Assembly: GCF_002162315.1 (NCBI RefSeq)
Contig: NZ_CP021416.1
Location: 2,368,207 to 2,432,206, forward strand
DNA: 64,000 nucleotides
DNA from: Sulfurospirillum diekertiae
GTDB lineage: Bacteria; Campylobacterota; Campylobacteria; Campylobacterales; Sulfurospirillaceae
Reading direction: 5' to 3'
The notes under the pieces were generated by a model. The model worked only from the letters and a program-made list of their open reading frames with translations, was not told the origin of the DNA and ran no database searches. The first letter of the stretch is position 1, and every line of letters begins with the position of its first letter. A program made the position numbers and the translations under genes. Shown here one piece after another: positions 1 to 61,888 of the stretch.

Positions 1-562
1 CACGTGGAAGTAATGTTTGAAAGTATGAGATAAGTTTTGCTCCCTCAGAAGAGCCCAAAAGTAAGAGTAATAGCTCTTGCAATTTTAAGATCAAAATCGT
101 GTCAACAAATGCTGGTTTTTGTTCGATAAAAGGCAAAAGGGAAAGCGCTGTACTTTTCATGATTGGAGTCAATTCTATCTTGCAAAAAGGCTCAGAAGTA
201 TGCTTGAGCATCTTTACATGTAAAGGTATTTTTTCTAAAATAGGCGATAACCAATTCCCAATGATCTTCTCATCAAAAAAGATGAGCAAACAGGTATAGT
301 TTCCACCTTCACATACTTCGCTCATCACATATTCACCCCTCGAGAGGAAAAATGCCTCACCCGCTTTGACCTCAACATCACCTTTTTTCGTATGAAGCAT
401 TTTTTTGCCTTCCAAAATAATATTAAGAAGATTTTGCTCCATATACGCTTCGGCTCTGTAATGATCTTCTACCACAAAATAACGCGCTATTACCACGCCA
501 TTGGCTTCGATCGCATGCTCTTTATAATTTTTTTTAATGTATTCAAGTACGTGGATAGACAT
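1..562 (-). CDS. AraC-family transcriptional regulator, N-terminal part (runs off window start)
   Basis: This gene reads leftward from an ATG at 562 and stays open to base 1, so the C-terminal helix-turn-helix half lies outside the window. The visible 187 residues begin MSIHVLEYIKKNYKEHAIEA and include a cupin-like stretch (EGKKMLHTKKGDVEVKAGEA, residues about 55-75) and a late LKLQELLLLL segment. That is the typical linker of ExsA-like AraC regulators just before the DNA-binding domain. It is divergent from tagI, 68 bp away, so it may control that run of genes; this is inference from position only. It carries one copy of the TTACATGTAA palindrome (214-223). The family assignment rests on the N-terminal domain alone. 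Confidence 0.72.
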   Translation of the reverse strand, partial: MSIHVLEYIKKNYKEHAIEANGVVIARYFVVEDHYRAEAYMEQNLLNIILEGKKMLHTKKGDVEVKAGEAFFLSRGEYVMSEVCEGGNYTCLLIFFDEKIIGNWLSPILEKIPLHVKMLKHTSEPFCKIELTPIMKSTALSLLPFIEQKPAFVDTILILKLQELLLLLLGSSEGAKLISYFQTLLPR

Positions 563-630
563 TGGCATTTCCTGTTCGTTAACTCTATTGCGTTACAATT
601 TTAGCACATACCTCTTTGAGGAGAAGAAAA

Positions 631-1194
631 ATGACACAAAACATTTCACGTTGTGGCTGGGTAAAACTGAGTGATGCTACTTACGTGGCATACCACGATG
701 AAGAGTGGGGAAAACCTCTGCATGATGATCGAGCCCTCTTTGAACTTTTTTGCTTAGAAACTCAATCAGCTGGGCTTAGCTGGCTTACAATTTTAAAAAA
801 ACGTGATGGCTACCGCAATGCTTTTGCTAGTTTTGTTCTTGAGAAAGTGGCTCATATGGGGGAGATGGATGTTGAACGCATTTTAAGTGAAGGCGAAGTC
901 ATCAAAAGTCGCCCTAAAATCGAAGCCATCCTTCATAATGCCAAACTTTTTCAAGCCATTGCTCAAGAATTCGGTTCACTGGATACCTACTTTTGGAATT
1001 ATGTAGGTGGCAAAACAATTGTCAACGATGTGAGCGATTACAAAACTGCCGCATGCACTTCGACCATTTCCGATACTTTAACCAAAGATCTTAAAAAACG
1101 AGGCTTCAAATTTGTCGGATCCACCACGATTTATGCGTTTATGCAAGCGTGTGGTATGGTAAATGACCATGAAAACAGTTGTAGGTGCAAATAA
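631..1194 (+). CDS. tagI: DNA-3-methyladenine glycosylase I
   Basis: A 187-residue base-excision repair enzyme that removes 3-methyladenine from alkylated DNA. Family hallmarks are all present: N-terminal CGWVKLSD with the zinc-ligand Cys8, YHDEEWG (21-27), an SAGLSWLTILKKR block that forms the HhH fold and base pocket, and the C-terminal GFKFVGSTTIYAFMQACGMV followed by NDH and Cys, which complete the zinc site. I chose the ATG at 631, preceded by GAGGAG at 619-624, over an upstream TTG at 616. It is the first gene of a compact rightward run; the next start codon lies one base past its stop codon. Confidence 0.95.
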   Translation: MTQNISRCGWVKLSDATYVAYHDEEWGKPLHDDRALFELFCLETQSAGLSWLTILKKRDGYRNAFASFVLEKVAHMGEMDVERILSEGEVIKSRPKIEAILHNAKLFQAIAQEFGSLDTYFWNYVGGKTIVNDVSDYKTAACTSTISDTLTKDLKKRGFKFVGSTTIYAFMQACGMVNDHENSCRCK

Positions 1195-1195
1195 A

Positions 1196-1552
1196 ATGAC
1201 GTTTGAAATCCTCAATAACTACTGCCTCAGCCACATAGGTGCAATCAAAGAGTACCCCTTCGATAACACAACTGCCGTTTATAAAGTCGGCGATAAGATT
1301 TTTGCATTAATTGATGAAGCGAGCAATACTCCACGCATCAATCTCAAATGTGACCCATACTATGCAAGAGAACTCAGGGAAATGTACGAAAACGTCATTG
1401 CAGGCTATCATATGAACAAAAGACATTGGAATACAGTCATTTGTGAAGACGAAATAGACGAGACTTTAATTTTTGAGTGGATCGACGACTCATATGACCT
1501 TGTCTTTAATTCATTGCCTAAAAAATTACAAATTTTTATCCGCAATTCTTAA
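1196..1552 (+). CDS. MmcQ/YjbR family protein
   Basis: A 118-residue protein beginning MTFEILNNYCLSHIGAIKEY, the usual opening of the MmcQ/YjbR fold (CyaY-like DNA-binding superfamily). Further family features are a VYKVGDKIFALI strand pair, the KCDPYYARELREMY helix, and YHMNKRHWNTV. Molecular role is not established for most members. The frame is open upstream, but the ATG at 1196 gives the normal N-terminus and begins immediately after the tagI stop, which implies translational coupling; the Shine-Dalgarno is weak. Position between tagI and a yciI-like gene suggests co-transcription, not a shared pathway. Confidence 0.85.
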   Translation: MTFEILNNYCLSHIGAIKEYPFDNTTAVYKVGDKIFALIDEASNTPRINLKCDPYYARELREMYENVIAGYHMNKRHWNTVICEDEIDETLIFEWIDDSYDLVFNSLPKKLQIFIRNS

Positions 1553-1563
1553 CAGGAGTTTTC

Positions 1564-1854: not shown

Positions 1855-1863
1855 AGGAATTTC

Positions 1864-2463
1864 ATGACAGAGACACTGAACGCTTACCTTCAAAGCTCCT
1901 TCGTCATTGATTTTGAACACCCTTCGATTTTAGAGAAAGCAAAAGAATTAAGAGGAGATACCCAGAAGGATGTTGACATTGCCAAAAACTGTTTTACCTT
2001 TGTGCGCGATCATATTCGTCATACGGGAGATCATAGAGATGCCATCATTACATGTAAAGCCAGTGATGTCTTAGCCTTGCAAACAGGATGGTGCTATGCC
2101 AAAAGCCACCTCTTGGCAGCTTTGTGTCGTGCCAATAGCATTCCTACAGGCTTTTGTTACCAACGACTCAGCCTTTTGGGCAATGGTGACGAACCTTATA
2201 CACTACATGGACTCAATGCCATTTATCTGAAAGACTTTGGCTGGTACCGCGTGGATGCCAGAGGCAATAAAGAAGGGGTCAATGCAGAGTTTTCTCCACC
2301 GCTCGAACAACTTGCCTTTAAAGTTAAGGCGTCGCATGAAATCGACTTTCAAGAGATCCTGAGTGAGCCTTTAAGCATCGTCATCACCGCCTTGCAAACG
2401 TATACAAGCTTTGAAGAGTCTTTGAAGCATTTACCCGATTGCACAGAAATAACGCGACTTTAG
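1864..2463 (+). CDS. Transglutaminase-like domain protein
   Basis: A 199-residue cytoplasmic protein (no signal peptide seen) with the papain-like transglutaminase-core triad: Cys in TGWCYAKSHLLAALCRA (about residue 77), His in TLHGLNAIYL (about 119) and Asp in RVDARGN (about 135). Families of this kind hydrolyse or crosslink peptide amides, but the substrate here is unknown. The start is preceded by AAAGGAATTTC. It is the last gene of the tagI run. A TTACATGTAA copy lies inside the gene (2048-2057, encoding ITCK) and another 3 bp beyond the stop codon (2467-2476). Confidence 0.85.
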   Translation: MTETLNAYLQSSFVIDFEHPSILEKAKELRGDTQKDVDIAKNCFTFVRDHIRHTGDHRDAIITCKASDVLALQTGWCYAKSHLLAALCRANSIPTGFCYQRLSLLGNGDEPYTLHGLNAIYLKDFGWYRVDARGNKEGVNAEFSPPLEQLAFKVKASHEIDFQEILSEPLSIVITALQTYTSFEESLKHLPDCTEITRL

Positions 2464-2520
2464 CCGTTACATGTAAAGATTTTGTGCAGGATTAGGCAAG
2501 AATTCTACGAAAATGTTCTA

Positions 2521-2548: not shown

Positions 2549-2574
2549 AAATACTACAAATCAAAGGAAAACAC

Positions 2575-3752: not shown

Positions 3753-4219
3753 CTCCAAAACGCTTCGGCTAAAGCCAATTCTTCTTCACTAAATACTGCA
3801 ATGCCATTTTCTCGCAACAGTTTACATGTAATGCCAGAATCATTTACGCGTGTGCTTGTAAAGGTGCCATCGTAGATAACGTCTTTGCCGCATGAGGGGC
3901 TTCTGGCTTTTAAAATCGCCATGCACACGCCCTCTTCTTGAGCTATTTTCAAACTCTCACGTGCTCCTTTAGCAAATGCCTCACTAACATCTTCACCGCT
4001 CTTGCACACAACTGTATTTGTTCCTTCGAGCACTTCACACGGAGGTCTAGGAACACTGAGCCCTCCAAGCACTTCAGGGCACAACGGAACCAAAACACCC
4101 TGCTCTTTCCACGCTTCGAGCATCTTTACATGTAAAGCATTATTGCCACCATCATATTTGACATTTTCACCCATCAAACACGCACTGATGAGGATTTTTC
4201 GTTCTCTATTCAAAATCAT
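3740..4219 (-). CDS. DUF523 family protein
   Basis: About 159 residues matching the whole length of DUF523, a small cytoplasmic family of unknown function. Typical elements are ILISACLMGENVKYDG at the N-terminus, CPEVLGGLSVPRPPCEV, and the ARSPSCGKD motif near residue 104, with conserved cysteines that suggest a metal or redox role (inference). The best start is the ATG at 4219 or the TTG at 4213, both inside the end of the ClC gene and close to AAAGGATG. The two genes therefore overlap and are probably co-expressed. Two TTACATGTAA copies (3822, 4127) lie in the gene, encoding ITCK and LHVK. Confidence 0.85.
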   Translation of the reverse strand: MILNRERKILISACLMGENVKYDGGNNALHVKMLEAWKEQGVLVPLCPEVLGGLSVPRPPCEVLEGTNTVVCKSGEDVSEAFAKGARESLKIAQEEGVCMAILKARSPSCGKDVIYDGTFTSTRVNDSGITCKLLRENGIAVFSEEELALAEAFWRQKG

Positions 4220-5694: not shown

Positions 5695-6855
5695 TTAACC
5701 AACGATCGACGCAATAATCTCCTTAGCGCGCTTCTTTGCTGCTTCCACTTCATCCAAGACCAATGCAACAGCCATACGACGACCCACATGGCTCACGGGT
5801 TTACCAAAAATGCGCACATAGGAATTTTTAGAAAAAGCCGTTTCAGGAATCGTGAGTGTTGGCACATGCTCTTCATTTGAGCTTTTAAACGCGCCACTCG
5901 CACCCGAACCGTAAAAGGTAAAATCAAGCGGTAAGCCAAGAACCGCTCTTACATGTAACGCAAATTCGCTCTGAGATTGCGTGATCATCGTGACCATTCC
6001 CGTATCGTGTGGACGGGGGCTCAGTTCACTAAAATAGACCTCATCGTCTTTGACAAAAAATTCTACGCCAAAAAGACCACGACCACCCAAGCCATCGGTC
6101 ACTGCTTTGGCCATCACTTGCGCTTTGGCTAAGACTTCGGGTTTCATCGGCACAGGCTGCCAACTAAGCACATAGTCACCGTTTTCTTGGATATGCCCGA
6201 TCGGTTCACAAAAGACGGTTTCTTTGCCATTACGAACGGTTAAAAGCGTGATCTCATAGTCAAATGGCACAAACGCTTCAACGATGAGTTCACTCGCATC
6301 ACCGCGTGCCTCTTTGGCGATCTCCCACGCTTTTTGGATGTCCGCCTCACTTTTGATGACGCTTTGTCCATGCCCTGAGGAGCTCATAACAGGTTTAACC
6401 ACGCAAGGAATCCCAAGCTTTTGAGTCGCTTCTTGCAATGCTTCAAGTGTTTTTACAAAGACATAACCGCTGGTTTTAAGTCCTAATGTTTCTGCGGCAA
6501 ACTCACGAATGTTTTTGCGGTTCATCGTCTTTTTGACCGCATCCGCGTTAGGAATGACGCAAAAGCCCTCTTTCTCTGCCTCTATCAGCGCTTCGATGCT
6601 CAAAGCTTCGACTTCGGGCAAGATGAACGTTGGCTTTTCACGACGAATAACCTCTAAAAGTTCCTCTTTGTTTTTCATATTGATGACATAACTTCGATTG
6701 GCGACCAAGTGCGCAGGTGCTTGTGGGTACGAATCCACCGCAACGGTTTCAATGCCCAAGCGAGAGGCTTCGATAACGACCTCTTTGCCCAGTTCACCGC
6801 TTCCGATCAACATAATTTTCGTGCTATTGCTTTTAAGGGGAGTTGTAAAGTGCAT
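5695..6855 (-). CDS. purT: Formate-dependent phosphoribosylglycinamide formyltransferase (GAR transformylase 2)
   Basis: A 386-residue ATP-grasp enzyme that uses formate and ATP to formylate GAR in purine synthesis. The N-terminal [17 protein letters not shown] (14-30) is the pre-ATP-grasp domain. [13 protein letters not shown] (about 155) is the ATP-binding loop, and [25 protein letters not shown] carries metal and ATP ligands. It would act with purA, also in the window. A diverged 32-codon relic of this gene's residues 41-72 sits 1.3 kb away at 8036-8131. One TTACATGTAA copy (5949) encodes LHV. Confidence 0.96.
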
Positions 6856-7820: not shown

Positions 7821-8035
7821 CAAATGACTCGTATGGGAGGAGTTAAACGTGTTAGAAGTACCATAAAAACGCTCCAAGCTGATTTTAACCGTCATTCTAC
7901 ACAAAAGTGCTCGAAAAAGTCTAACGCTTGTCATTCATGATTGGTATACGGAAAATTCATTTTACATGTAAAGGTGCGTGATGGATTTTTTGGCTTAAAC
8001 CACGCACAAAACAAAAGCCAAGCCCTCAAAAAAAA

Positions 8036-8133: not shown

Positions 8134-8778
8134 TCACATCTTTTTCAATGTCACGCAAAAAAGCTTGCGAGGCAATCCGCCCTCTTCAAATTTTTCCACG
8201 TGAATCAATTCAAAGCCTTTGGTGAGGGATTGTACTTTTTCGGAAGAGAAAAAATGAACGATAAAACCACCCATTTCATACATCTCTTCGCCTCGGTGAA
8301 TGCCTTGTTTGTAGTGAGAATCCTCCATATGGCGCACCGTGTAGATGTTATAGCCGCCCGGTTTCAAAATGCGACAGATCTCGCCATTGAGAAACTCCAA
8401 ATCGGCCGTTGATAAAGGCATACAGTAGAGCATATGCGAAAAGCAGGCATCAAAGCTCGCATCTTCAAACGGAAGGGGTTTTCGTACATCGTGTTGGCAC
8501 AACGAGAGAGAAAGGTTCAGATTTTTAGCCCTGTTTGCAATGGCATCTAGCCCTTTTTGTGTGTAATCAAGCGCGCTTACATGTAAACCATTATGCGCGA
8601 AAAAAAGCGTGTCGCGCCCTTGCCCAGCGCCCAACTCAAGAAGTGAGGAAACACCTTTTTCGTGAAACAAAGCCGTTGCGTAATATGCAGGATAACTAGC
8701 TTCTAAGCCAAACATTTCACTATTTTTACCAAACATCGTTTCCCAGTGATTTTGCTGGGCATCTAATACTGATTGCAT
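8134..8778 (-). CDS. Class I SAM-dependent methyltransferase
   Basis: A 214-residue Rossmann methyltransferase. Motif I is LLELGAGQGRDTLFF (about 44-58), followed by the acidic LDYTQKG loop, CQHDVRKPLPF with motif IV-like DASFDACFSHMLYCMP, and the post-motif RILKPGG. The overall form resembles the Methyltransf_11/TehB-like group; the substrate cannot be read from sequence. The ATG at 8778 follows GGGAGTTTGAG and is preferred to an upstream in-frame start at 8793. The stop codon abuts the purT relic, so this gene probably came to sit where a second purT copy decayed. Confidence 0.85.
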   Translation of the reverse strand: MQSVLDAQQNHWETMFGKNSEMFGLEASYPAYYATALFHEKGVSSLLELGAGQGRDTLFFAHNGLHVSALDYTQKGLDAIANRAKNLNLSLSLCQHDVRKPLPFEDASFDACFSHMLYCMPLSTADLEFLNGEICRILKPGGYNIYTVRHMEDSHYKQGIHRGEEMYEMGGFIVHFFSSEKVQSLTKGFELIHVEKFEEGGLPRKLFCVTLKKM

Positions 8779-8939
8779 CTCAAACTCCCTCAATATAGTG
8801 GTAACATTATAGAAGAAGAGAGATTAATCGTCCATTTAGCCCCGCAAATATCGCTCTAAGCCAAACGGAGATAAAATCTTCAACATAAATTATTTTAGAT
8901 TCCAGTACAGCTGACTCTTTTTACATGTAAAGGTTTTTT

Positions 8940-10621: not shown

Positions 10622-13345
10622 CTATAAGCTTTTGACAAGTTCAACGCCATCGTTTTGCAAATAGCAAATATACGCCTCCACCGGCAAATTATAAATCGTA
10701 GAAAGTGCATCTTGATAGAGCTTCACTTGTGTTTGGTGTTTGTCACTCTGCTTTTTCGAGCTTTTATAATCAATGACAACAATGCGATCGGGAAATTCTA
10801 GCAAAAGATCGATCTGCTTGCGCTCTTTTTGATAAATAAGCGGTTGTTCTTTATAGACTTTTGCCCCCTCTATCAACTCCAAGAAAGCTTTACATGTAAT
10901 CAATTTTTCGCCCCGTTGATAGATCGCTTGCAAGGTTGGCTCATCCAAAAGCGGTGCAAAACGGTTTTGCAGTGCGATGTAAGCCCTCTTGAGCGAAGAT
11001 GCATCAAAACTGTCTAACATCTCCAACAGATAGTGCTGTGCAATTCCAAAGGTTATGGAGGCAATCTCTGCACTCTCGCTCTCAACGTCTGGTGTATTTG
11101 CTACCTCTTGCGCACCATAGCGTTTAGGCTGATGGACATGCATCGTGCTTGGAATAAGCGGTGTCTCTTTGGTTGAAACACCAATCATACCTCGCTCTGT
11201 GGTGCTCAGTTCCAGCATCTCAAACGCACTGTTTTGTGCTTTAGCGCAGACAAACAGTGAACGCTTCGCTCGGGTAAATGCCACGTAAAGCGCATTGAGC
11301 CGATCTTCGTACATCAAGACACTCTCTTGCTCTTTGGCTTTGGCATAGATGACATCGACCGATTCTCTGCCACCCATAGTGAGGTAAAGCCCTTTGATGT
11401 CCACTTCATCGTAGCTAAATAAAATCGTATCGCTTCGATTGTTATCGCGGCTCAAACGATCACACACAATGACATGCTCAAACTCCAAGCCTTTGGATTT
11501 ATGCACAGTTAAGACACGCAGGCCATCTACATCTTCGCTTTTGGCTTCATCGCTCAGCTCATCCAACGCAAATAAAAAGCTCTCGATCTCTTCGTAACGA
11601 CTCACAACCTCTAAGAAACTGAGCAGATCCACACTGCCATCAAACAGACCGTAATTTTTGATGATCTTTTCAACCAAAACGAGTGGCGTCGCATCTAAAT
11701 CCCAACCTTGTTTGGAAAGCGGTGTATCCCACGTCTTGCCGCACTGTGCAAGAAACGTTGCTTTGTAGAGCTCATCGCCAAAATAGAGGTATTTAAGCAA
11801 AGCAATAATGGCTTTGATAGAACGCACTTCAATGAGTTTCAAGGTCGCCTCAAGTCTTACATGTAAAGAGGGAAACTGTTCTTGCACCAGCGCTTTAAAG
11901 ACTTTGGCATCTTTGTTCGTATGCACCAAAAGGGCAATGTCTTTGGGCTTAACACCCTCTTTAAGAAGCAAAGAAATCGCCTCTAAAACAGAAGGCTCAA
12001 TCATCTCTTCAATGCGCACATTGATGTACCCCTCACCCGTGGCTTTGGCAACCTTTTGTGGCTCATACCCTTTGATTTTACATGTAAAGATTTCATTGAC
12101 AAAATTCACGACCTGCTCGGTGCTTCGATAGTTGGTATCAAGCGCATTCACGTTTAAATGCAAACTCTTTTTAGCATACCCAAACAGCTCTTTAGCCCCA
12201 CCGCGAAATCGGTAGATCGACTGCTTCACATCGCCCACGAAAAAGAGTGTTTTAAAATCTTTCACACCCTGCCCTGCACGTATTTCTTCAATAAGTGGCA
12301 GAAGAATCTGGTACTGCACGATGCTCGTGTCCTGAAACTCATCGATCAGCAGATGCTCTATCACCCCATCAAGGCGAAAATAGAGAAAATCTTTGCTGAT
12401 CTCTTGGCGCAAAAGGGTATAAAGCAGATTGGTAACGTCATCAAAACGAAGTTCACCATACTCACCCATCAAAGCTCTGAGGCTCTCATCGTAAATGGCA
12501 AACAGTTTGCCCAGTTGCCCTAAAAAGTACGCCTCTTTGGCATTGACATGTTCGTTTAGCGCCTGTTTGAGCTCACGCAAAAGCGCATCCACTGTCTCAT
12601 TGGCATACTTTTTATAGTCCCAATACCCAAAGTCTTCTCGCTCCAAATACTTCTTGGAAAGCAGATCGCTAAGTGTGTCCGCTTTGAGTGTTGCCAGTCC
12701 ACGCGCGGAGAGTCCGCTTTGCTCAAAGTAGTCTCTAATGCGCTCTAAAATATCCAAGCACGGTTTTAAGGATGGGTAATGTCCTTCATCTAAGGTGCTA
12801 ATGTCAAGCTCTGATTTTTTCTGGTACAGCATATCCAGCAGGCTAAAAAGATCATTTAGCTTCTTATCTTCGTTGATGCTAAAAGCTATCAGAGCATTGT
12901 AAAGATTTTTGCTTTTGCATCCTTTGATGAAACGCTCCACCAACTCCTCATCGAGCCCATTTTGTCCCACTTTAAAGTCGGGTTGTAAGCCTACATGTAA
13001 TGCAAAATGGCGCAAAATCAAAGAGAAAAAAGAGTCCAGCGTCGAGATCTTGATATCGGCTTGTAGCAAGGTTTGCATGACACGCTCTTTCTCAAGGAGT
13101 AACGTCTCTTTTGACTTGCCCGTTTGCACGCAAATCGCTTCTAACTCGTCTTTCTCTTCTAAATGTTTCAGCGTCTCAAAGATGCGCGTTTTCATCTCTG
13201 CCGCAGACTTGTTGGTAAAGGTGAGTGCTACGATCTTTTGTGGATTCGCACCCATAAAGAGAAGTGAGAGGTAACGCACACTCAGCGCAAAGGTTTTTCC
13301 ACTTCCAGCACTGGCTTCGAGTGCTAAATAAGGACTTAGATTCAT
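10622..13345 (-). CDS. addA: ATP-dependent helicase/nuclease subunit A (RecB-like)
   Basis: A 907-residue UvrD-type helicase with a C-terminal nuclease, one half of the AddAB double-strand-break resection enzyme. Motifs in order are Walker A ASAGSGKT (about 10-17), LLIDEFQDTSIVQY (motif II), GDVKQSIYRFRGG (motif III), VLTVHKSKGLEFEHV (motif V), LYVAFTRAKRSL (motif VI) and a PD-(D/E)XK core with RIVVIDYKSSKKQ. The ATG at 13345 follows GGAGGAGCAGAT and overlaps the addB stop (ATGA). An upstream start at 13411 would put unrelated residues before the P-loop. It holds three exact TTACATGTAA copies and one near-match. Confidence 0.94.
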   Translation of the reverse strand: MNLSPYLALEASAGSGKTFALSVRYLSLLFMGANPQKIVALTFTNKSAAEMKTRIFETLKHLEEKDELEAICVQTGKSKETLLLEKERVMQTLLQADIKISTLDSFFSLILRHFALHVGLQPDFKVGQNGLDEELVERFIKGCKSKNLYNALIAFSINEDKKLNDLFSLLDMLYQKKSELDISTLDEGHYPSLKPCLDILERIRDYFEQSGLSARGLATLKADTLSDLLSKKYLEREDFGYWDYKKYANETVDALLRELKQALNEHVNAKEAYFLGQLGKLFAIYDESLRALMGEYGELRFDDVTNLLYTLLRQEISKDFLYFRLDGVIEHLLIDEFQDTSIVQYQILLPLIEEIRAGQGVKDFKTLFFVGDVKQSIYRFRGGAKELFGYAKKSLHLNVNALDTNYRSTEQVVNFVNEIFTCKIKGYEPQKVAKATGEGYINVRIEEMIEPSVLEAISLLLKEGVKPKDIALLVHTNKDAKVFKALVQEQFPSLHVRLEATLKLIEVRSIKAIIALLKYLYFGDELYKATFLAQCGKTWDTPLSKQGWDLDATPLVLVEKIIKNYGLFDGSVDLLSFLEVVSRYEEIESFLFALDELSDEAKSEDVDGLRVLTVHKSKGLEFEHVIVCDRLSRDNNRSDTILFSYDEVDIKGLYLTMGGRESVDVIYAKAKEQESVLMYEDRLNALYVAFTRAKRSLFVCAKAQNSAFEMLELSTTERGMIGVSTKETPLIPSTMHVHQPKRYGAQEVANTPDVESESAEIASITFGIAQHYLLEMLDSFDASSLKRAYIALQNRFAPLLDEPTLQAIYQRGEKLITCKAFLELIEGAKVYKEQPLIYQKERKQIDLLLEFPDRIVVIDYKSSKKQSDKHQTQVKLYQDALSTIYNLPVEAYICYLQNDGVELVKSL

Positions 13346-16318: not shown

Positions 16319-16919
16319 GGCTTTTTATCCTTTTATAAATGATGAGTATTACAACAATCGCCATAAATCCATAAATCAGAAGTCTCACAATATTGATAGT
16401 GACTTTATTGGCACTGCCAATGGCACTCTCTAACTCTATTTTACGGTATGCTGCAATCTCTTCAACCAATTCTGCATAACCATTGAGCAATGCAGGTCCA
16501 ACACTCACTTCATTTTTTTTAGAAGTTAAGAGTGGAATAATCGTACCATTCCATGGCAAAGGTGAGAGGAGTGCTTCACGATCAAACTCTTTCTCAAGCC
16601 CTGCTGATTGGTACACATCTACTTTTTTTTCTGCTTGAAAGAGCGTTAAAAGAACATACGGTGTGGTTAAATTTTTGGCAAAGTTTTGCTCATATGCGAG
16701 AATATTCTCTCCCTCGCCACTTTTTTTAGCAATCAAAATAACTTTTATACCACTTTTTGCGAAAAGTTCACTGCCCATCTCTTCAATTTTCTGAGCGGTT
16801 CTCTCTTCTAAGCTATCATCATAAATGACAAATTCCTTGGCAAAAATCAACACTGGGAAAAAGGCAAGAAAGCAAAGAAGCCATAGCTTCTTTGCCTTTA
16901 CATGTAATAAATTCTTCAT
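16299..16919 (-). CDS. Membrane-anchored periplasmic protein of the cbb3 oxidase cluster (TPM-like)
   Basis: 206 residues: an N-terminal hydrophobic signal or anchor (LWLLCFLAFFPVLIFAKEF), an exported domain resembling the TPM/Psb32 alpha-beta fold (LEERTAQKIEEMGSELFAKSGIKVILI and DVYQSAGLEKEFD), then a C-terminal membrane segment (LLIYGFMAIVVILIIYKRIKS). Function unknown; a role in oxidase assembly is suggested by position only. I chose the ATG at 16919, which overlaps the stop of the tiny upstream gene (TAATG), not the in-frame start at 16958. A TTACATGTAA copy (16898) encodes LHVK at residues 5-8. Confidence 0.72.
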   Translation of the reverse strand: MKNLLHVKAKKLWLLCFLAFFPVLIFAKEFVIYDDSLEERTAQKIEEMGSELFAKSGIKVILIAKKSGEGENILAYEQNFAKNLTTPYVLLTLFQAEKKVDVYQSAGLEKEFDREALLSPLPWNGTIIPLLTSKKNEVSVGPALLNGYAELVEEIAAYRKIELESAIGSANKVTINIVRLLIYGFMAIVVILIIYKRIKSRGQSEK

Positions 16920-25979: not shown

Positions 25980-26022
25980 AAATTACCTTTACATGTAAAG
26001 ATGAAAGATCTTCTTGCAAAAC

Positions 26023-26095: not shown

Positions 26096-28199
<2,104 letters not shown>

Positions 28200-42427: not shown

Positions 42428-43186
42428 TCAAGATAGAGACAAAATTTCTACTTTACCATCTACGATAGCAACCGTGTGCTCATAGTGGCTTCCTCTTAAC
42501 CCATCGGCAGAAACTACGCCCCATTTATCTTCTAAAATCTTTGGTGTACCATCTTTATAGCAGATCATTGGCTCAATACAGAATACCATACCATTTTTGA
42601 TTTTAGGGCCACTCTTAGGATTAATCCCTTCTAAATAATTAGGAAGTTCTGGCTCTTCATGCGCTTTTCTACCAATACCATGTCCACAAAATCCACGCAA
42701 AGGAACATATCCTTTTTGTAGAATAAATTGCTCAATAGCATAGCTCAACTCTTTAAAGCGCATTTCCGGCTCAATAATATCAATGGCATAGTAAAGCGCA
42801 TCTTTAGCACATGCGATTAAAGATTCATCACTCTTTGAAATTTCACCGACTCCTACTGTTACAGCAGAATCTCCATACCAGCCATCAATTTCAGTGCCAA
42901 TATCAAGACCGATGATATCCCCTTCCTGAAGACGATACTCTGTCGGAATTCCATGAATAATTACTTCATTAACAGACGTGCAGACCCCCGCAGGAAATCC
43001 ATAAAGGCCTTTAAAGGCAGCACGAGCTCCCATACTTTTAATGTAAGACTCACCCATGGCATTCAGTTCTTTCAAACTGATTCCTGGATGAATATTACAT
43101 GTAAGATAGTCTAATGTTTTTGCAACAATTTGGTTTGCAACCGAGAGCTTTTTGATCTCTTGCGGTTTTTTAATAGTAATTGCCAT
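42428..43186 (-). CDS. map: Methionine aminopeptidase, type I
   Basis: 252 residues; removes N-terminal Met from nascent proteins. Metal ligands are Asp in [15 protein letters not shown] (two Asp), His in [13 protein letters not shown], and Glu in MVFCIEP and the C-terminal YEHTVAI region. 5 bp after secY, in the common secY-map-infA order. It contains the only TTACATGTAA (43095) between 38.1 and 53.3 kb. Confidence 0.97.
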
Positions 43187-53055: not shown

Positions 53056-54129
53056 GTGCAAACACTTCAATCATTTTATGAAATGAATTTCAAAAATACA
53101 CTCTTTTTTGATCGTAAAATTTCTATTACTCATAAAAAAACTATTCTTTATGGACCAAGGAAGAGTGGAAAAAGTCATCTCATAATTGATCATTTAAGTC
53201 ATTATGAAAAAGGAAGTTATCTTTACATTGATTTTTCTGATGACCGCGTCGAGCCTCATTTGGTCGCTGAAAATCTGGCCATTTTTGTGCAAAAAAATCG
53301 TATCAAACTATTGATAATAGAGCATTTTGACTTCTCTTTTGAACTTCCAAATATCGATGAAATTTTACTCACAACTATCTTTACATGTAAAACACTTAAG
53401 GGGTACGATTCACTCATACTTTATCCACTAGATTTTGAAGAATTTATCTCCTTTGATAAAAAACATTCCAATATCGAACATCTTTTTAACTTCTATACCA
53501 ACAGCGGAACATTTCCACAAATCGTACAAAATAGTGAACAAAGTTCTCAAAAACAGATGCAAGAGATGCTTCACCTAATTTTAAAAGATGCCACAACGTT
53601 TCTCATCTACAAACGTTTATGTGAAATGCAAGGCTCAAAAATTTCACTTTTCCAGATTTACAACCATCTAAAAGTCTTCACAAAAATTTCTAAAGATAAG
53701 CTCTATGCCATAACCTCTGACCTCATCGATCAGAATCTTCTTTTTTTGGTAGAAAAATACAATCAACCCAGCGCCTCCAAAAAAGTCTACCCTATTGACT
53801 TCGCGCTCAAAGATGCTCTGACTTTCAAAAAAGACTTTTTGAAGCGCTTTGAAAATATGGTTTTTTTAGAACTCATCAAACGAGGCAAAAAGGTCTTTTA
53901 TGAAGAAGGCATTGACTTTTATCTACCCGATGAATCTCTTGCTATTTTATGTGTGGGCTTTGCCACCACAGAGGCGATTGAGATAAAACTTCAAAAGCTT
54001 TTACCTACGTTTTGGGCTTTACATGTAAAGCGTATTGAAGTGGTTACACTGAGCAGTGAAAGTGCCAAAGACATTGAAGGCTTTAGCTTTTCCATTGCTC
54101 CTTTTTGGGAATGGGCATTACAACTCTAA
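53056..54129 (+). CDS. P-loop ATPase of unknown function
   Basis: 357 residues from a GTG at 53056, six bases after AAAGGA; an in-frame TTG at 53041 is less likely. A clear Walker A, GPRKSGKS (33-40), is followed by a Walker B-like LLIIEHFDFS. Later IDFALKDALTFKKDFLKRFE, FENMVFLELIKRGKKVFYEE and a VGFATTEAIEIKLQKLLPTF tail resemble the DUF4143/PD-(D/E)XK-like ends of AAA-type ATPases linked to mobile or toxin systems. I do not recognise a named member. It is the first gene after the ribosomal promoter, divergent from rpsJ, and overlaps the next leftward gene by 12 bp at their stops. Two TTACATGTAA copies. Confidence 0.75.
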   Translation: MQTLQSFYEMNFKNTLFFDRKISITHKKTILYGPRKSGKSHLIIDHLSHYEKGSYLYIDFSDDRVEPHLVAENLAIFVQKNRIKLLIIEHFDFSFELPNIDEILLTTIFTCKTLKGYDSLILYPLDFEEFISFDKKHSNIEHLFNFYTNSGTFPQIVQNSEQSSQKQMQEMLHLILKDATTFLIYKRLCEMQGSKISLFQIYNHLKVFTKISKDKLYAITSDLIDQNLLFLVEKYNQPSASKKVYPIDFALKDALTFKKDFLKRFENMVFLELIKRGKKVFYEEGIDFYLPDESLAILCVGFATTEAIEIKLQKLLPTFWALHVKRIEVVTLSSESAKDIEGFSFSIAPFWEWALQL

Positions 54130-55373: not shown

Positions 55374-55439
55374 ACTTAACTCCTTTGGGACATTTTAGCA
55401 AATCTACACTAAACTTCGTTTACATGTAAAGGAGTTTGA

Positions 55440-56356: not shown

Positions 56357-58533
56357 TGAAAAAAATAGTCATAGCTCTTGTAGGTCAACCCAATGTGGGC
56401 AAAAGCCATCTTGCCAACGCGATGAGTGGATCAAACCTCAAAATTGGTAACTTTGCAGGTGTCACGGTTGAAAAAGCAACCGCTCGTTTAAAAACAGAAG
56501 ATTTTGCGATTGAGTTTATTGACCTTCCTGGTCTTTATTCACTTGAAGATTTTTCGGCTGATGAGAAAGTCACCAAAGACTTTTTACAAAAAGGGGAATA
56601 CGATCTTATATTAAATGTTGTCGATTCTACCAACTTGGAACGCAATCTCATGCTGACAACAGAGCTCATGGAACTTCAAAAAAAGATGGTGATTGCTCTG
56701 AATATGGACGATGAAGCCATTAAAGAAGGAATTGACATCGATGCGGAGGCTATGAGCAAAATTCTCTCAGTTCCTTGCGTGCGTGTCTCTTCAAAAATCA
56801 AAACGAACATTGAAATGTTGATTGATCAGGTTTTACATGTAACCAAAAATGAGTTCATTGCACCCAAATTGGTTTACAGCGATGAAGTCGAAGAACAACT
56901 CCAAACGATTGTACGTTTTTTAGAAGATAAACATTTTACAATGCCTCATTTTAGCAACCGTCAAATCGCAGTGGGACTTCTATGGCAAAAAAGAGAAATT
57001 TACGCGCTAATGCATGAACAACCTCTGTATGTTGAGCTACATCCTATTCTCAATAATGCCCTTGGACATGTTTACATGTACGCTCAAAGTGAAGATATCG
57101 AAGAGATCATCAACCGTCAACATGGAGCGTTTAGTGCAGGGCTGAGTGCCGAAGTGCTTCATGTCACCAAAGTAATACGCAAAAATCTCACACAGACGAT
57201 TGATGCGATTTTGATTCATAAACTTTTAGGGCTTCCAATCTTTATCTTTTTAATGTGGGGACTCTTTCAACTCACCTTCACGCTAGGGCGAATTCCAATG
57301 GACTGGATTGAGGCAAGTTTTGGCTGGCTAGCAGAGACTGTCGGAAATACCATTGATAATGAAGCGATGAAGTCACTGATTGCCGATGGTATTATCGCAG
57401 GTGTGGGCAGTGTTGTGATGTTTTTACCCAATATTATGATTCTCTTTTTAGGCATTGCACTGCTTGAAACCACTGGGTATATGTCTAGAGCGGCTTTCTT
57501 GCTTGATGGCTTCTTCCACAAATTTGGGCTTCACGGCAAAAGCTTTGTACCCCTCGTAACGGGCTTTGGATGTTCCGTTCCCGCCTATATGGCCGCACGT
57601 ACTTTGAAAAATAAAAAAGACCGTTTGCTAACGATGTTTATCATTGGGTTTATGAGTTGTGGCGCACGACTTCCTGTGTATGTTCTTTTTGCAGGCGCTT
57701 TTTTTGAAGAGAATATGGCCGGAAATGTCTTGTTTGGCATATACATCACAGGGGCACTTTTAGGGCTTATTGCCGCTAAAATTCTTCGTGTGAGTGCGTT
57801 CAAAGGCGAAGATGAACCTTTTGTTATGGAGATGCCAAAATATCGCTTACCGAGCCTAAAGCTTTTATGGTTTGTAGTCTATTCAAAATCCCTAATGTAT
57901 ATCAAAAAGGCGGGGACGTTTATTTTGATGGCTTCCATGCTTATCTGGTTTATCAGTTCATACCCCAAAAATAGTCTGATTGAAGAAGAGTATACGACCA
58001 AAATTGAAGCGTTACAACCAAGCGTGACTGAAGAACAGAGCAACAGTATTGAAGAGGTTACAAAAACCGTTGAGGAAGATAAAGGTACTTCTCTTGAAGA
58101 GGCAACCAAAGCCTTAGAAAATGAAAAACGTGAGAAATTGATGGAGCACACCTACCTTGGCATGATTGGTAGAACGATTGAGCCTGCTTTTGCACCACTG
58201 GGCTTTGACTGGAAAATGAGTGTCGCAACGTTCAGTGGACTAGCCGCAAAAGAGGTCATCGTCTCAACGCTAGGTGTTCTTTACTCATTAGGTGATGGTG
58301 TCAAAGAAGATGATGGTTCTCTTCGTGCGATCATTACCGCCAATATTAGCTTCCAATCGGCAATGGCATTTATCGTCTTTGTCATGGTGTACTTACCATG
58401 CCTTGCAGCAACCGCAGTCTTTGCAAAAGAGGCAGAAGAGACAAAATATACCGTCTATCTGGTCATCTTTACCTTTGCAACAGCGTGGGTGTTGGCCTTC
58501 ATCACCTACCAAGGATTAATGCTTCTTGCATAA
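56356..58533 (+). CDS. feoB: Ferrous iron transport protein B
   Basis: 725 residues. N-terminal G domain: G1 GQPNVGKS (8-15), G2 region GNFAGVTVEK, G3 DLPGLYS, and an atypical G4 in IALNMDDEA (N-x-D). Membrane domain has two Gate repeats (ETTGYMSRAAFLLDG, GCSVPAYMAARTL and a second GFMSCGARLPVYV with Cys). Imports Fe(II) in anaerobic or microaerobic growth. An unusual feature is a soluble, highly acidic stretch near residues 555-595, with two near-repeats (SIEEVTKTVEED and SLEEATKALENE). Two TTACATGTAA-type sites: 56833 exact and 57072 with a terminal C. Confidence 0.95.
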   Translation: MKKIVIALVGQPNVGKSHLANAMSGSNLKIGNFAGVTVEKATARLKTEDFAIEFIDLPGLYSLEDFSADEKVTKDFLQKGEYDLILNVVDSTNLERNLMLTTELMELQKKMVIALNMDDEAIKEGIDIDAEAMSKILSVPCVRVSSKIKTNIEMLIDQVLHVTKNEFIAPKLVYSDEVEEQLQTIVRFLEDKHFTMPHFSNRQIAVGLLWQKREIYALMHEQPLYVELHPILNNALGHVYMYAQSEDIEEIINRQHGAFSAGLSAEVLHVTKVIRKNLTQTIDAILIHKLLGLPIFIFLMWGLFQLTFTLGRIPMDWIEASFGWLAETVGNTIDNEAMKSLIADGIIAGVGSVVMFLPNIMILFLGIALLETTGYMSRAAFLLDGFFHKFGLHGKSFVPLVTGFGCSVPAYMAARTLKNKKDRLLTMFIIGFMSCGARLPVYVLFAGAFFEENMAGNVLFGIYITGALLGLIAAKILRVSAFKGEDEPFVMEMPKYRLPSLKLLWFVVYSKSLMYIKKAGTFILMASMLIWFISSYPKNSLIEEEYTTKIEALQPSVTEEQSNSIEEVTKTVEEDKGTSLEEATKALENEKREKLMEHTYLGMIGRTIEPAFAPLGFDWKMSVATFSGLAAKEVIVSTLGVLYSLGDGVKEDDGSLRAIITANISFQSAMAFIVFVMVYLPCLAATAVFAKEAEETKYTVYLVIFTFATAWVLAFITYQGLMLLA

Positions 58534-58570: not shown

Positions 58571-58575
58571 ATTAT

Positions 58576-59658
58576 TTATCGATTGTAAACGTGTTTAAGA
58601 TGCTCTATTTTAGCTCCAAGGTTCAAAAGAAGCAGATCAGCAATGACTAACGCTGCCATCGATTCAGCAACCACGCTTCCACGTACCGCGATGCACGGAT
58701 CATGCCTTCCTTTGAGATTACATGTAAGTGCGTTCCCTTCTGTGTCAATCGTCTCTTGCGCGATAAAAATAGAAGGAGTCGGTTTGAAATAAACTTTACA
58801 TGTAATGGTATCGCCATTGCTCATACCACCTAAAATTCCACCACTGTGATTGGTTACAAAACCCTCTTTGGTGATCGCATCATTATTTTCTGAACCTTTA
58901 AGCGAAGAGGCATGAAAACCCTCGCCAATTTCAACCCCTTTAACGCCATTAATACCCATCATCGCTTCAGCTAACAGAGCATCAAGTTTATAATAAATTG
59001 GTTCTCCCAGTCCAGCGGGCGCGCCTACAACATGCACCAAAGCCGCACCACCCACGGAATCATGCGCATTTTTAGCTTCTAAGATAGCCGCCTTTTGTGC
59101 CTCTTCAACGTTTTTATCGAGGGCATAAATCTCGCTCTTTGCTACACGCTCAAAATCATAGCTTTTTGCTTCAATATCCCCAATCGCGCAAATACCACTT
59201 TGAACCTTTACATGTAAAGTATTTAAAAGCAGTTTTGCAATCGCTCCAGCGGCTACACGCGCGGCAGTTTCCCTGGCACTACTGCGTCCGCCACCTCTAT
59301 AATCTCGAAGACCATACTTGGCAAAATAGGTAAAGTCTGCATGCCCCGGACGAAAAAGGTCTTTGACACTGTCATAATCTCCGCTTTTTTGGTTTTCGTT
59401 AAAAATAACCATGGCAATGGGAGTTCCCGTGCTTTTGCCTTCAAACACACCGCTTAAAATTTCGATGGTATCGCCTTCTTTGCGTGCGGTAGCAAATTTA
59501 TTTTGACCGGGCTTTCTTCTATCTAGCTCACGTTGGATAAATGCTTCATCAATTTCTAAACCCGCAGGTACACCATCGACGACACAACCGATTGCCTTTC
59601 CGTGCGACTCGCCGAAGGTTGTGAAGCTAAACTTTTTGCCAAATGTATTGCTACTCAT
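58576..59658 (-). CDS. aroC: Chorismate synthase
   Basis: 360 residues, FMN-dependent final step of the shikimate pathway. Signatures are [40 protein letters not shown] and the C-terminal [20 protein letters not shown]. Three TTACATGTAA copies in this gene (58718, 58796, 59208), the first two 78 bp apart. Overlaps rnc by ATGA. Confidence 0.97.
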
Positions 59659-60338: not shown

Positions 60339-60369
60339 TATCTTTCCTTTGTCATTTTTACAACGCTAT

Positions 60370-60430
60370 TTAGGCAAAGCCTAAAAGCTACGTTAGCCAC
60401 TAGGGCGCTAAAGCTAGCCTCTTGCGAGGC
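60370..60430. repeat. Three stem-loops in the rnhA-rnc gap
   Basis: TTAGGC-AAA-GCCTAA (60370-60384), TTAGC-N9-GCTAA (60393-60411) and GCCTC-TTGC-GAGGC (60417-60430) fill most of the 103-bp gap, with AAAAGCTAC directly repeated at its two ends. May be a terminator/processing site or a small dispersed element. Confidence 0.5.
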
Positions 60431-60441
60431 AGAAAAGCTAC

Positions 60442-60867
60442 TTAACCTATTTTGATTTTAGTTGCTTCTTCTTTAGCGATTCGATCGCACATCTCGTTCT
60501 CAGCATGCCCATCATGCCCTCTCACCCAAATGCCATGCACTTTATGAATTTTTGAAACCTCAACATAACGCTGCCACATTTCTGGGTTTTTCACCTTGGC
60601 AAAACCTTTGCGTTTCCAGCCTTCAAGCCATTCATTAATGCCTTTAATCACGTAACTCGAATCGCTAATGAGTGTTACATCGCATGGTTCTTTAAGGGCT
60701 GCTAAGCCTTCAATAACGGCAAGCAGTTCCATCTGATTATTGGTGGCATTTGCCATTCCACCACTGACCACACGCTCCACATCACCAAAACGTAAAATCG
60801 CACAATAGCCCCCAGCCCCAGGATTTCCTAAGGAAGAGCCATCACAGAAAAGAGATATTTTCTTCAT
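60442..60867 (-). CDS. rnhA: Ribonuclease HI
   Basis: 141 residues. Catalytic residues: Asp in LFCDGSSLGNPGAGGYCAIL, Glu in NNQMELLAVIEGL, Asp in ISDSSYVIKGINEWLEGWKR and the terminal Asp in ENEMCDRIAKEE. Removes RNA from R-loops and primers. Its start overlaps the TPR gene end by 26 bp. Confidence 0.95.
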   Translation of the reverse strand: MKKISLFCDGSSLGNPGAGGYCAILRFGDVERVVSGGMANATNNQMELLAVIEGLAALKEPCDVTLISDSSYVIKGINEWLEGWKRKGFAKVKNPEMWQRYVEVSKIHKVHGIWVRGHDGHAENEMCDRIAKEEATKIKIG

Positions 60868-61888
60868 CGTCTGCTTTGGTAAGTCTGGTGTGAATTGTTA
60901 CCGTATTGATGCTTTGGCAATGAGGGCATCTGTAAAAATGGATCGGAAAAACTTGCTTGCACTCAGCGCAAAGGTACTCAAAACCAAGACTTGCTTTGTG
61001 ATACCCAATACTTTGAAGTTTTCCTAAAACATCAATCGCAAAAGGTGCTTCGCTTTCTAACGCTGCATAAGGGCGAAGTCCCCGTGCCATCGCAATTTGC
61101 TGCACTAATGGATCTTTACATGTAAGAATGTCATACACCATCGGATCAACATACCATAAAAGATCAATCATATCCGAAGAAGAGAGTGTTTCAAAAAAAG
61201 AAGACTCGATTTTAATGCCATTTTCCTGCAAATATTCAAACAATCTTCGCTTTAAAAAAGGTGCTGTCTTGCAAAGTTCTAAAAGCTTCTCAACTTTTTG
61301 GCTCTCTTTAAGATGACTCTCTTTAATCGTTTCTAGTGCTTTAAGATACGTTCTTTGCACACTCACTTTTGCACCCAACTCTTCCAATGAGTCCAAAACC
61401 TCTTCGGCTTTAACATACTCTTGGAGCTGTTCATAGGCTACGGTTAAATATTTGAGGGATTCAGCATTTCGGGGATGTAAGCGCAATGACTCCAAAAAGA
61501 CTTCGGAACTTCGTCGCAAAAAGCCTGCTTTAAAATAAGTCTTTCCAAGGGTTGAAAGAAGGTACTGCTTTTCGTCTTTGCCTTTGACACGCTTTAACGT
61601 CACAAGATAGATATTGATCGCTTTTTCATAATCGCCACTTTTGGCATAAGCATGCGCTAGCAACGCTAAAGATTCCAAAGGAATGGAAGCATCTTCTAAA
61701 AGCTTTTTATACTCGTTTTCATCGGTGACAATTTCAAATTTTTTAACAAATTTATCGATGCTCTGCTTCTCTTCTTTGTTCTTAAAAACACCCCACCAAT
61801 AGTTGGAGAAAGAGATCACAAACACAATCGCAAACAAGATAATGACACCAAAAAGCGGATCACGATACGCTATAAAAAAATTATCCAA
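60842..61888 (-). CDS. TPR protein with C-terminal zinc-ribbon-like motif (LapB/YciM-like)
   Basis: 348 residues. N-terminal membrane anchor (PLFGVIILFAIVFVISFSNYWW), several TPR units (LALLAHAYAKSGDYEKAINI, SSEVFLESLRLHPRNAESL, KYLTVAYEQLQEYVKAEEVL), and a C-terminal CAEC...CPHC pair that could bind zinc or iron. This recalls LapB (YciM), which controls LPS synthesis; membership is inferred from architecture only. Divergent from dnaG by 67 bp. It contains TTACATGTAA at 61116. Confidence 0.72.
   Translation of the reverse strand: MDNFFIAYRDPLFGVIILFAIVFVISFSNYWWGVFKNKEEKQSIDKFVKKFEIVTDENEYKKLLEDASIPLESLALLAHAYAKSGDYEKAINIYLVTLKRVKGKDEKQYLLSTLGKTYFKAGFLRRSSEVFLESLRLHPRNAESLKYLTVAYEQLQEYVKAEEVLDSLEELGAKVSVQRTYLKALETIKESHLKESQKVEKLLELCKTAPFLKRRLFEYLQENGIKIESSFFETLSSSDMIDLLWYVDPMVYDILTCKDPLVQQIAMARGLRPYAALESEAPFAIDVLGKLQSIGYHKASLGFEYLCAECKQVFPIHFYRCPHCQSINTVTIHTRLTKADDEENISFL

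What the first reader, a model, noticed from the sequence alone, without database searches (positions are those of the whole stretch)
214..61125. A highly iterated 10-12 bp palindrome, TTACATGTAA, occurs 33 times in 64 kb
Seen directly: 33 exact copies, 4 one-base variants. A given 10-mer of this base composition should appear well under once in 64 kb by a rough composition estimate. Palindromes found at this density and mostly inside unrelated genes behave like HIP1 of cyanobacteria or like chromosome-organising, uptake or modification signals. I do not know of a described system for this sequence in Campylobacterota. It could be the target of a nucleoid protein, a solitary methyltransferase, a recombination enzyme or a replication/segregation factor.
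Basis: partly seen in the sequence, partly recalled or inferred. Interest (0 to 1): 0.9.

Follow-up and report, generated by a model that had tools for sequence, protein, structure and literature searches.

The report
Genome-wide DNA palindrome tag in Sulfurospirillum
Sulfurospirillum and some related bacteria carry over a thousand copies of one short DNA palindrome that evolution actively preserves, and its loss in several species goes with absence of a stand-alone DNA-methylating enzyme, which suggests a chemical 'self' tag on the chromosome, perhaps used when the cells take up DNA.

Summary
Confirmed and much larger than reported. TTACATGTAA occurs 33 times in the window and 1245 times in the 2.88-Mb genome, against 5 for the reversed control. 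It is not a codon effect (136 in genes against 12.7 after synonymous shuffling). The shared core is TACATGTA, centred on CATG, with lineage-specific flanks. It is abundant in 20 of 22 sampled genomes of the Sulfurospirillum family, patchy in two other families, and mostly near background elsewhere (397 genomes sampled). Sites are held in place: 107 of 115 are intact in a relative whose flanks are 90% identical. A nested relative (G021) keeps none of 67 sites compared. A D12-class methyltransferase without an ICEA-type restriction enzyme fits this pattern; its family elsewhere adjoins NlaIII/IceA (CATG) enzymes. All 15 genus members with the orthologue have at least 869 sites; the nine without have 49-934. 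The link is imperfect: nine site-rich genomes lack the enzyme, and ten site-poor ones carry a relative of it. Best reading: a HIP-like, methyltransferase-linked self tag, most likely read in DNA uptake (0.4). No prior description was found in the searches made.

The parts
214..223 (.). TTACATGTAA site
2048..2057 (.). TTACATGTAA site (one mismatch in G015)
2467..2476 (.). TTACATGTAA site
3822..3831 (.). TTACATGTAA site
4126..4135 (.). TTACATGTAA site
5949..5958 (.). TTACATGTAA site
7962..7971 (.). TTACATGTAA site
8577..8586 (.). TTACATGTAA site
8921..8930 (.). TTACATGTAA site
10890..10899 (.). TTACATGTAA site (two mismatches in G015)
11857..11866 (.). TTACATGTAA site
12078..12087 (.). TTACATGTAA site
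13452..13461 (.). TTACATGTAA site (one mismatch in G015)
14027..14036 (.). TTACATGTAA site
14684..14693 (.). TTACATGTAA site
15021..15030 (.). TTACATGTAA site
15141..15150 (.). TTACATGTAA site
16898..16907 (.). TTACATGTAA site
25989..25998 (.). TTACATGTAA site
27761..27770 (.). TTACATGTAA site
29403..29412 (.). TTACATGTAA site
31585..31594 (.). TTACATGTAA site
34599..34608 (.). TTACATGTAA site
37996..38005 (.). TTACATGTAA site
43095..43104 (.). TTACATGTAA site, the only one between 38.01 and 53.38 kb (a region with rpoA, secY, L14 and L2 genes)
53381..53390 (.). TTACATGTAA site (one mismatch in G015)
54019..54028 (.). TTACATGTAA site
55420..55429 (.). TTACATGTAA site
56833..56842 (.). TTACATGTAA site (one mismatch in G015)
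58718..58727 (.). TTACATGTAA site
58796..58805 (.). TTACATGTAA site
59208..59217 (.). TTACATGTAA site
61116..61125 (.). TTACATGTAA site. The associated methyltransferase gene lies outside the window, at G000:C1:2607450-2608424, minus strand (L019:15447-16424 with its stop codon)

Best explanation
A genome-wide self tag of the HIP kind. The core TACATGTA (in this lineage CTTTACATGTAAAG, symmetric, with A/T-rich positions further out) is kept in the chromosome by a process linked to an adenine methyltransferase (MTase A) of the NlaIII/IceA-associated CATG family, in genomes that have no ICEA-type restriction enzyme. Most likely the enzyme methylates the central CATG in this extended context, and the cell's competence (type IV pilus/ComEC) machinery prefers DNA carrying the methylated palindrome, as C. 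jejuni does with CtsM-methylated RAATTY. Preferred uptake and recombination of site-bearing alleles then drives and maintains the sites; where the enzyme is lost they decay. Shown: overrepresentation, conservation, decay, family membership of the enzyme, absence of ICEA, and association of the enzyme with site number.
For: 1) Density: 1245 against 5; 136 in genes against 12.7 in the synonymous shuffle. 2) Maintained in place: 107 of 115 aligned sites intact G000->G015, core identity 0.990 against 0.903 in the flanks. 3) Decay in G021, nested in the clade: 0 of 67 aligned sites intact (61 ungapped, 6 with gaps), core identity 0.720 against 0.774. 4) MTase A (at least 61% identity) in 15 of 24 genus genomes, all with 869-1496 sites; the nine others have 49-934. 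Six of these nine (49, 168, 238, 412; and 411, 605, which have a homologue of about 55% elsewhere) have the two flanking genes with no such enzyme between them. Mann-Whitney 12 against 7 genomes of at least 90% completeness: p = 3e-4, not tree-corrected. 5) One-mismatch sites per perfect site: 0.19-0.52 in the 15, 0.22-5.6 in the nine, in the direction decay predicts, though dialect differences (G022) add to it. 6) Homologues adjoin an ICEA (PF05315) gene in 4 of 6 loci where I tested a neighbour (E <= 1e-100; the neighbours tested in L136 and L154 matched nothing), while 0 of 15 MTase A genomes has ICEA. 7) Over 94 tested genomes, a homologue of at least 38% identity is in 21 of 30 with 200 or more cores and in 10 of 64 with fewer; outside the family 6 of 10 and 9 of 62, Fisher p = 0.004. 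G361, of another family (1480 cores), has one, and no ICEA. 8) Dialects around one core recall Neisseria. 9) comEC in 67 of 70 genomes. 10) C. jejuni precedent (passages of PMC8468864, PMC10046745).
Against: No methylation data, and no evidence of competence in this genus (none in the listings; one search listed 8 of 472 papers). The enzyme family is not sufficient: conserved forms sit in genomes at background (G010 28 cores, G053 9, G058 25). Nor is it necessary at present: G024 (1201 cores), G035 (1124), G391 (782; a weak partial match only), G032 (671), G168 (611), G008 (379), G333 (368), G028 (342) and G346 (246) lack it. ComEC does not discriminate and is kept in G021. The two pilin-type genes beside priA, candidate readers, are only 42-43% identical between G000 and G015, which share the dialect; Neisseria species sharing a DUS have near-identical ComP (passage of PMC3868556). 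The association was found after trying three candidate families (ComEC, pilin N-terminus, D12), is not corrected for phylogeny, and the 94 genomes were chosen by me, not drawn at random. Only the ICEA family of restriction enzymes was searched, so another cognate nuclease is not excluded.
Confidence: 0.4

Rival explanations
1. HIP-type by-product or aid of a methylation-dependent cellular process other than uptake (strand-directed repair as Elhai proposed for HIP1, or an essential epigenetic mark). The methyltransferase and a methyl-reader protein create and protect the palindrome.
For: Same layout as HIP1: an extended palindrome around the tetramer of an orphan methyltransferase. In the G000 sample one-base deviations concentrate at the outermost position (24 of 47; 16 of the 24 are T to C), as Elhai reports for HIP1 (section 2.6). 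Elhai also notes some HIP1-rich genomes without the CGATCG methyltransferase (section 3.4, part 1), as here.
Against: No reader or repair protein was looked for or identified; which mismatch-repair genes these genomes have was not tested. Dialect flanks several bases beyond CATG look like recognition by a separate protein.
Confidence: 0.22
2. A classical DNA uptake sequence read by a pilin-type receptor without methylation; the association with MTase A is indirect.
For: Density of one per 2.3 kb; (O-E)/E is 164 at 0 mismatches, close to 183 for H. influenzae (PMC1939737 table 1); dialects; rich genomes without the methyltransferase.
Against: At one mismatch (O-E)/E is 0.34 here against 2.0 (H. 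influenzae) and 4.8 (N. gonorrhoeae), although the reversed control gives -0.385 here. It does not explain why sites decay where the methyltransferase is absent from its usual place. The priA-adjacent pilins do not track the dialect.
Confidence: 0.17
3. Binding site of a nucleoid or chromosome-organising protein (homodimer).
For: Palindrome, even spread, 4.3-fold intergenic enrichment and highest density between convergent genes (4.84 per kb, 17 sites in 3.5 kb).
Against: Patchy occurrence over three families and decay without replacement (the 360-kb G021 sample has no substitute palindrome) are odd for a core organiser. Spacing is near random (CV 0.91).
Confidence: 0.12
4. Restriction-modification effect: sites are a side effect of a CATG restriction system.
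For: The enzyme family is that of NlaIII/IceA systems.
Against: Restriction leads to avoidance, not enrichment (CATG is 0 against 62 expected in the 21-kb H. magdeburgensis locus L199). No ICEA in the MTase A genomes (0 of 15; other nuclease families not searched); CATG outside sites is similar in G000 and G021 (O/E 0.72 and 0.68).
Confidence: 0.03
5. Composition or codon artefact, or repeats spread by a mobile element.
For: None found.
Against: beyond the first two or three flanking bases the copies share only a loose A/T preference.
Confidence: 0.01

Closest known systems
HIP1 (GCGATCGC) of cyanobacteria and its orphan methyltransferases (PMC4390886: outline, passages, section 2.6 and part 1 of section 3.4 seen)
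   Same: Very frequent palindrome; centred on the tetramer of an orphan methyltransferase; enzyme presence goes with abundance, with exceptions; deviations mostly at the ends; lost in some lineages.
   Different: Another phylum, A/T-rich sequence, CATG not GATC at the centre, symmetric flank dialects. The terms 'Sulfuro' and 'ACATGT' do not occur in that text.
DUS/USS of Neisseriaceae and Pasteurellaceae (PMC1939737: outline and one results section seen; PMC3868556: passages)
   Same: Density, mismatch profile at load 0, dialects between related species, tolerance at outer positions.
   Different: Palindromic here (the known ones are not, from recall); no receptor, no competence data; far weaker excess of one-mismatch copies.
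CtsM / RAATTY methylation-dependent uptake in Campylobacter jejuni (PMC8468864, PMC10046745: passages)
   Same: Same class; orphan adenine methyltransferase marking self DNA for uptake; pilin-like competence gene beside priA.
   Different: RAATTY is short and ubiquitous (28,170 in the C. coli genome of PMC4687069), so no enrichment is needed. Homologues at 29-33% identity in open frames of 366-433 aa, possibly CtsM, occur in f3 genomes (identity with CtsM not tested).
NlaIII / IceA1-HpyIM (CATG) restriction-modification systems (passages of PMC2749054 and PMC4687069)
   Same: Methyltransferase family.
   Different: No ICEA gene in MTase A genomes; sites enriched, not avoided.

Membership tests
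Highly iterated palindrome (HIP) | Palindrome strongly overrepresented genome-wide | tested here: met
Highly iterated palindrome (HIP) | Centre is the target of a resident orphan methyltransferase | tested here: inconclusive
   Family and lack of ICEA shown; actual specificity and methylation unknown; other nuclease families not searched
Highly iterated palindrome (HIP) | Methyltransferase presence goes with abundance | tested here: met
   21 of 30 rich against 10 of 64 poor genomes, with nine rich exceptions; not tree-corrected
Highly iterated palindrome (HIP) | One-base deviations concentrate at the ends | tested here: met
   24 of 47 one-mismatch sites in the G000 sample are at position 1/10, where one fifth of the variant types lie
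Highly iterated palindrome (HIP) | GCGATCGC or a GC-rich alternate in a cyanobacterium | tested here: not met
   Different phylum and sequence; so 'works like', not a member of the HIP1 set
DNA uptake sequence (DUS/USS) | Overrepresented motif with near-miss excess | tested here: inconclusive
   Load 0 met, load 1 weak
DNA uptake sequence (DUS/USS) | Competence machinery present | tested here: met
   comEC in 67 of 70, pilin-type N-termini in 46 of 46 genomes; not discriminating, and other competence genes not searched
DNA uptake sequence (DUS/USS) | Dedicated receptor matching the dialect | tested here: inconclusive
   The two priA-adjacent pilins do not match; one further pilin-like protein is 63% identical between G000 and G015; the rest were not compared
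DNA uptake sequence (DUS/USS) | Enhances DNA uptake | not testable with these tools
   needs experiment
Type II restriction-modification (NlaIII/IceA) | Cognate ICEA-type restriction enzyme | tested here: not met
   0 of 15 MTase A genomes
Chi / KOPS / matS / parS | Strand polarity or regional clustering | tested here: not met
   Palindrome; 5-14 sites per 20 kb in twenty evenly spaced stretches

The most novel reading that the evidence does not exclude
A palindromic, methylation-read DNA uptake sequence with species dialects across Campylobacterota, written by a CATG-family methyltransferase that has parted from its restriction enzyme: a link between HIPs and uptake sequences.
Probability: 0.35. 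Interest if true: 0.92.

Novelty: new variant of a known kind. Interest (0 to 1): 0.78.

Why it matters
HIP1 was described in 1995 and Elhai (2015) still wrote that little is known about its significance (passage); that paper also treats uptake sequences and HIPs as separate classes. This system lies outside cyanobacteria, has natural losses at several points of one genus tree, one candidate writer gene with a recognisable place in the chromosome, and complete genomes on both sides. That makes 'what keeps an iterated palindrome in a genome' directly testable by deletion, long-read methylation calls and uptake assays.

Tried and rejected
ComEC as the discriminating gene: in 67 of 70 genomes, rich and poor alike. 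The pilins beside priA: variable and mosaic, not tracking the dialect. D12 methyltransferases as a whole: too broad; the subfamily is what tracks. Other methyltransferase families (PF01555, PF00145, PF02384) were not searched, so the rich genomes without MTase A may have another enzyme. A replacement palindrome in G021: none in the 360-kb sample. CATG avoidance as a way to assign specificity: only 10 of 69 named loci show CATG O/E below 0.2, while GGCC is below 0.2 in 20 and GATC in 13, so this is weak on its own; the ICEA neighbours carry the argument. Nearest solved structures of the methyltransferase by sequence: one hit, E 0.71, unrelated by name. A/T-rich positions +4 to +8 in the flanks of genic and intergenic sites: seen, not tested against a null. 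PMC4687349, which names Sulfurospirillum once, concerns GATC there (passages). Whether any single gene is present in all rich and absent from all poor genomes could not be searched.

Full report
OBSERVATION. The window holds 33 exact TTACATGTAA and 6 one-mismatch copies. The genome (2,876,536 bp, one contig) holds 1245 exact copies against 5 for the same letters read backwards. In a sample of 464 kb (20 evenly spaced 20-kb stretches, plus the window) it is by far the commonest palindromic 10-mer: 214, the next being 18. The sample grown to 483 kb (with L081) has 222 sites: 136 inside genes called by my own script (0.32 per kb) and 86 between genes (1.39 per kb). Within genes the reading frames split 81/52/3, the rare frame being the one with a stop codon, giving peptides such as LHVK (45) and FTCK (25). 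Synonymous-codon shuffling leaves 12.7 +- 3.0 of the 136. Density per 20-kb stretch is even (5-14) and spacing near random (CV 0.91). Intergenic density is highest between convergent genes (17 sites in 3.5 kb; 81 of the 86 intergenic sites could be classed). In the window, long gaps fall on 16.9-26.0 kb (of five proteins tested: ccoN, a ccoP-like protein below the family cut-off, a response regulator, carA, and a weak FlbB match) and 38.0-53.4 kb (one site; rpoA, secY, L14 and L2 among those tested).

THE MOTIF. Flanks are symmetric: A 77% at +1 and G 51% at +2 over both arms, the same in genic and intergenic sites, so not a coding effect. One-mismatch copies in the 464-kb sample number 47, 24 of them at the outermost base. 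In 397 genomes sampled from the class, the 8-mer TACATGTA counts 1201-1727 in 11 of 15 genomes of the window's genus and 109-671 in the other four (G021 109, G028 342, G022 657, G032 671). Elsewhere in the family: G010 28, G008 379, G037 443, G042 1019, G043 1110, G035 1124, G038 1297. In family f8 it is 221-848 in eight genomes (G156, G168, G221, G234, G333, G354, G381, G391). In family f3 it is 1480 in G361 and 246 in G346. The rest are mostly near the reversed control, with a few modest excesses (for example G366 113, G201 99, G263 91, G320 50 against 2). Flank preferences differ by lineage: G221 is relaxed at the outer base, G022 also shows ACATGTCA forms, G043 and G011 use A or G (samples of about 14-104 kb per genome). 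So the window's family is that of Sulfurospirillum and f8 includes Sulfurimonas. The window's own record was not shown by name.

EVOLUTION. Of 222 G000 sites, 115 could be aligned to fetched G015 DNA (107 dropped as unaligned; only part of G015 was fetched): 107 intact, 6 with one mismatch, 2 with more; core identity 0.990, flanks 0.903. In reverse 106 of 111 are intact (45 dropped). In G021, 67 could be aligned (155 dropped): 0 intact, 61 with 1-7 mismatches, 6 with gaps; core identity 0.720, below the flanks at 0.774. In the comEC region five of eight G000 sites are also intact in the more distant G014 but degraded in G021, so these were lost in G021 rather than never gained (tree).

THE METHYLTRANSFERASE. 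G000 has a 325-aa D12-class adenine methyltransferase (PF02086, E 2.5e-47) at C1:2607450-2608424. Its neighbours, named by eye from their sequences and not by a search, are a transglutaminase-like gene and a cheY-like gene; no restriction gene was recognised beside it. The cheY-like gene is beside it in 9 of the 15 genomes with it and the transglutaminase-like gene in 13, as far as the fetched flanks reach. Orthologues of at least 61% identity are in 15 of 24 genus genomes (G023 in two pieces), with 869-1496 sites. The nine without it have: G021 49, G033 168, G028 238, G022 411, G032 412, G025 605, G030 608 (77% complete), G029 840 (86% complete), G024 934; G022 and G025 have a homologue of about 55% elsewhere. 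In G021, G028, G022, G025, G032 and G033 both flanking genes are present without the enzyme between them; in G030 the contig ends there, and G024 and G029 show no transglutaminase-like orthologue. A four-protein tree puts G021 and G028 between lineages that have MTase A and the others in further lineages; the order of G021 and G028 has weak support (57). One-mismatch copies per perfect copy: 0.19-0.52 in the 15; G021 5.6, G033 2.2, G028 1.66, G022 1.64, G032 1.45, G025 0.80, G030 0.60, G024 0.38, G029 0.22 in the nine. Part of the G022 figure is dialect, not decay.

WHICH FAMILY. I tested neighbours in six loci, four of them chosen because they looked alike: in those four the neighbour is ICEA (PF05315; E 1e-100 to 2e-126); in L136 and L154 the neighbour tested matched no Pfam family. 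IceA1 resembles NlaIII and hpyIM is CATG-specific (passages of PMC2749054 and PMC4687069). So the family is CATG-type; the specificity of MTase A itself is not known. ICEA was found in 5 of 70 genomes (G033, G040, G054, G058, G242) and in none of the 15; no other nuclease family was searched. In the methyltransferase tree the genus enzymes form a long-branched clade; shorter-branched forms sit mostly in site-poor genomes (G043, with 446 TTACATGTAA, is an exception) and other diverged forms mostly in site-rich ones, though several forks are weakly supported. Of 94 genomes with both data, 21 of 30 rich (200 cores or more) and 10 of 64 poor carry a full-length homologue of at least 38% identity (thresholds mine, not tree-corrected, genomes not random).

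AGAINST. Nine rich genomes lack the enzyme and ten poor ones have a relative of it; see the Against line. Either the enzyme was lost recently or replaced in the former, or it is a companion and not the cause. G024 (ratio 0.38) could be a recent loss; this is inference.

MECHANISM. What is shown is a maintained signal whose maintenance has failed in several lineages without the enzyme. What reads it is unknown. I rate a methylation-dependent uptake tag highest because there is a precedent in the class (C. jejuni imports DNA methylated by CtsM at RAATTY; passages of PMC8468864 and PMC10046745), because dialects and patchy spread recall uptake sequences, and because two pilin-type genes sit beside priA (named by eye) as the competence gene cj0683 does. 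These pilins are mosaic: G000's second is 98% identical to that of G018, 73% to G016 and 43% to G015, a sign of exchange but not of a fixed receptor. The HIP1 repair model is the main rival. A 39.9-kb second contig of G016 carries 14 cores in its own dialect (4 as TTACATGTAA; reversed control 2) and its own diverged, probably truncated methyltransferase, an unexpected case of motif and enzyme together on what looks like a plasmid (ParA/ParB-like genes; read by eye, not searched).

LITERATURE. TTACATGTAA occurs in 18 held papers, none of them on this by title and abstract start; 'Sulfurospirillum' with 'uptake sequence' gives none; 'highly iterated palindrome' gives 10, on cyanobacteria or general by their listing; broader searches gave capped listings (12 of 933, 15 of 7133, 8 of 472, 10 of 12) with nothing on it. 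Only this open library was searched; REBASE was not available.

VERDICT. Real, maintained, lineage-wide and not seen described in the library searched; a new variant of the iterated-palindrome kind with a candidate enzyme and a testable function.

Noticed in passing
L283/L284 (G016:C2, 39,868 bp): Probable plasmid (ParA/ParB-like, insertion-sequence and two UmuC-like genes, all read by eye) with 14 TACATGTA cores in a dialect unlike its host chromosome, and its own diverged CATG-family methyltransferase whose C-terminus seems replaced next to IS21-like genes.
   Followed up: partly
L081:11453-12483 (G000:C1 about 1990452-1991482): Two pilin-type genes beside priA are mosaic: best matches in close relatives range from about 42% (G015) to 98% (G018), while the other genes of the stretch that matched are 89-100% identical between G000 and G015. 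Recalls cj0683 beside priA in Campylobacter.
   Followed up: partly
G011:C10:84230-84496, G043:C13:45325-45555, G070:C60:11410-11616: Short C-terminal stretches of the same methyltransferase family (40-56% identity), possible remnants of lost genes.
   Followed up: no
L093 and L124 (G010 sample, 32 kb): This genome, with a conserved-type enzyme and no TACATGTA excess, shows a mild excess of another CATG-centred 8-mer, ATCATGAT (14 against 5.7, both strands counted), perhaps a different dialect or chance.
   Followed up: no
window 16.9-26.0 kb and 38.0-53.4 kb: Site-poor stretches over ccoN and nearby genes and over a ribosomal protein/secY/rpoA region, as expected if strong codon constraint excludes sites.
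   Followed up: partly
G361 (family f3), L285:8025-8993: A genome of another family with 1480 cores in a dialect like the window's and a 39%-identical methyltransferase between an SDR-like and an MFS-like gene (named by eye); independent gain or transfer not resolved.
   Followed up: partly
G033:C17:1430-1981: G033, one of the genus genomes without MTase A and with few sites, has an ICEA-type gene (E 3.5e-36); whether it is active or has a partner was not examined.
   Followed up: no
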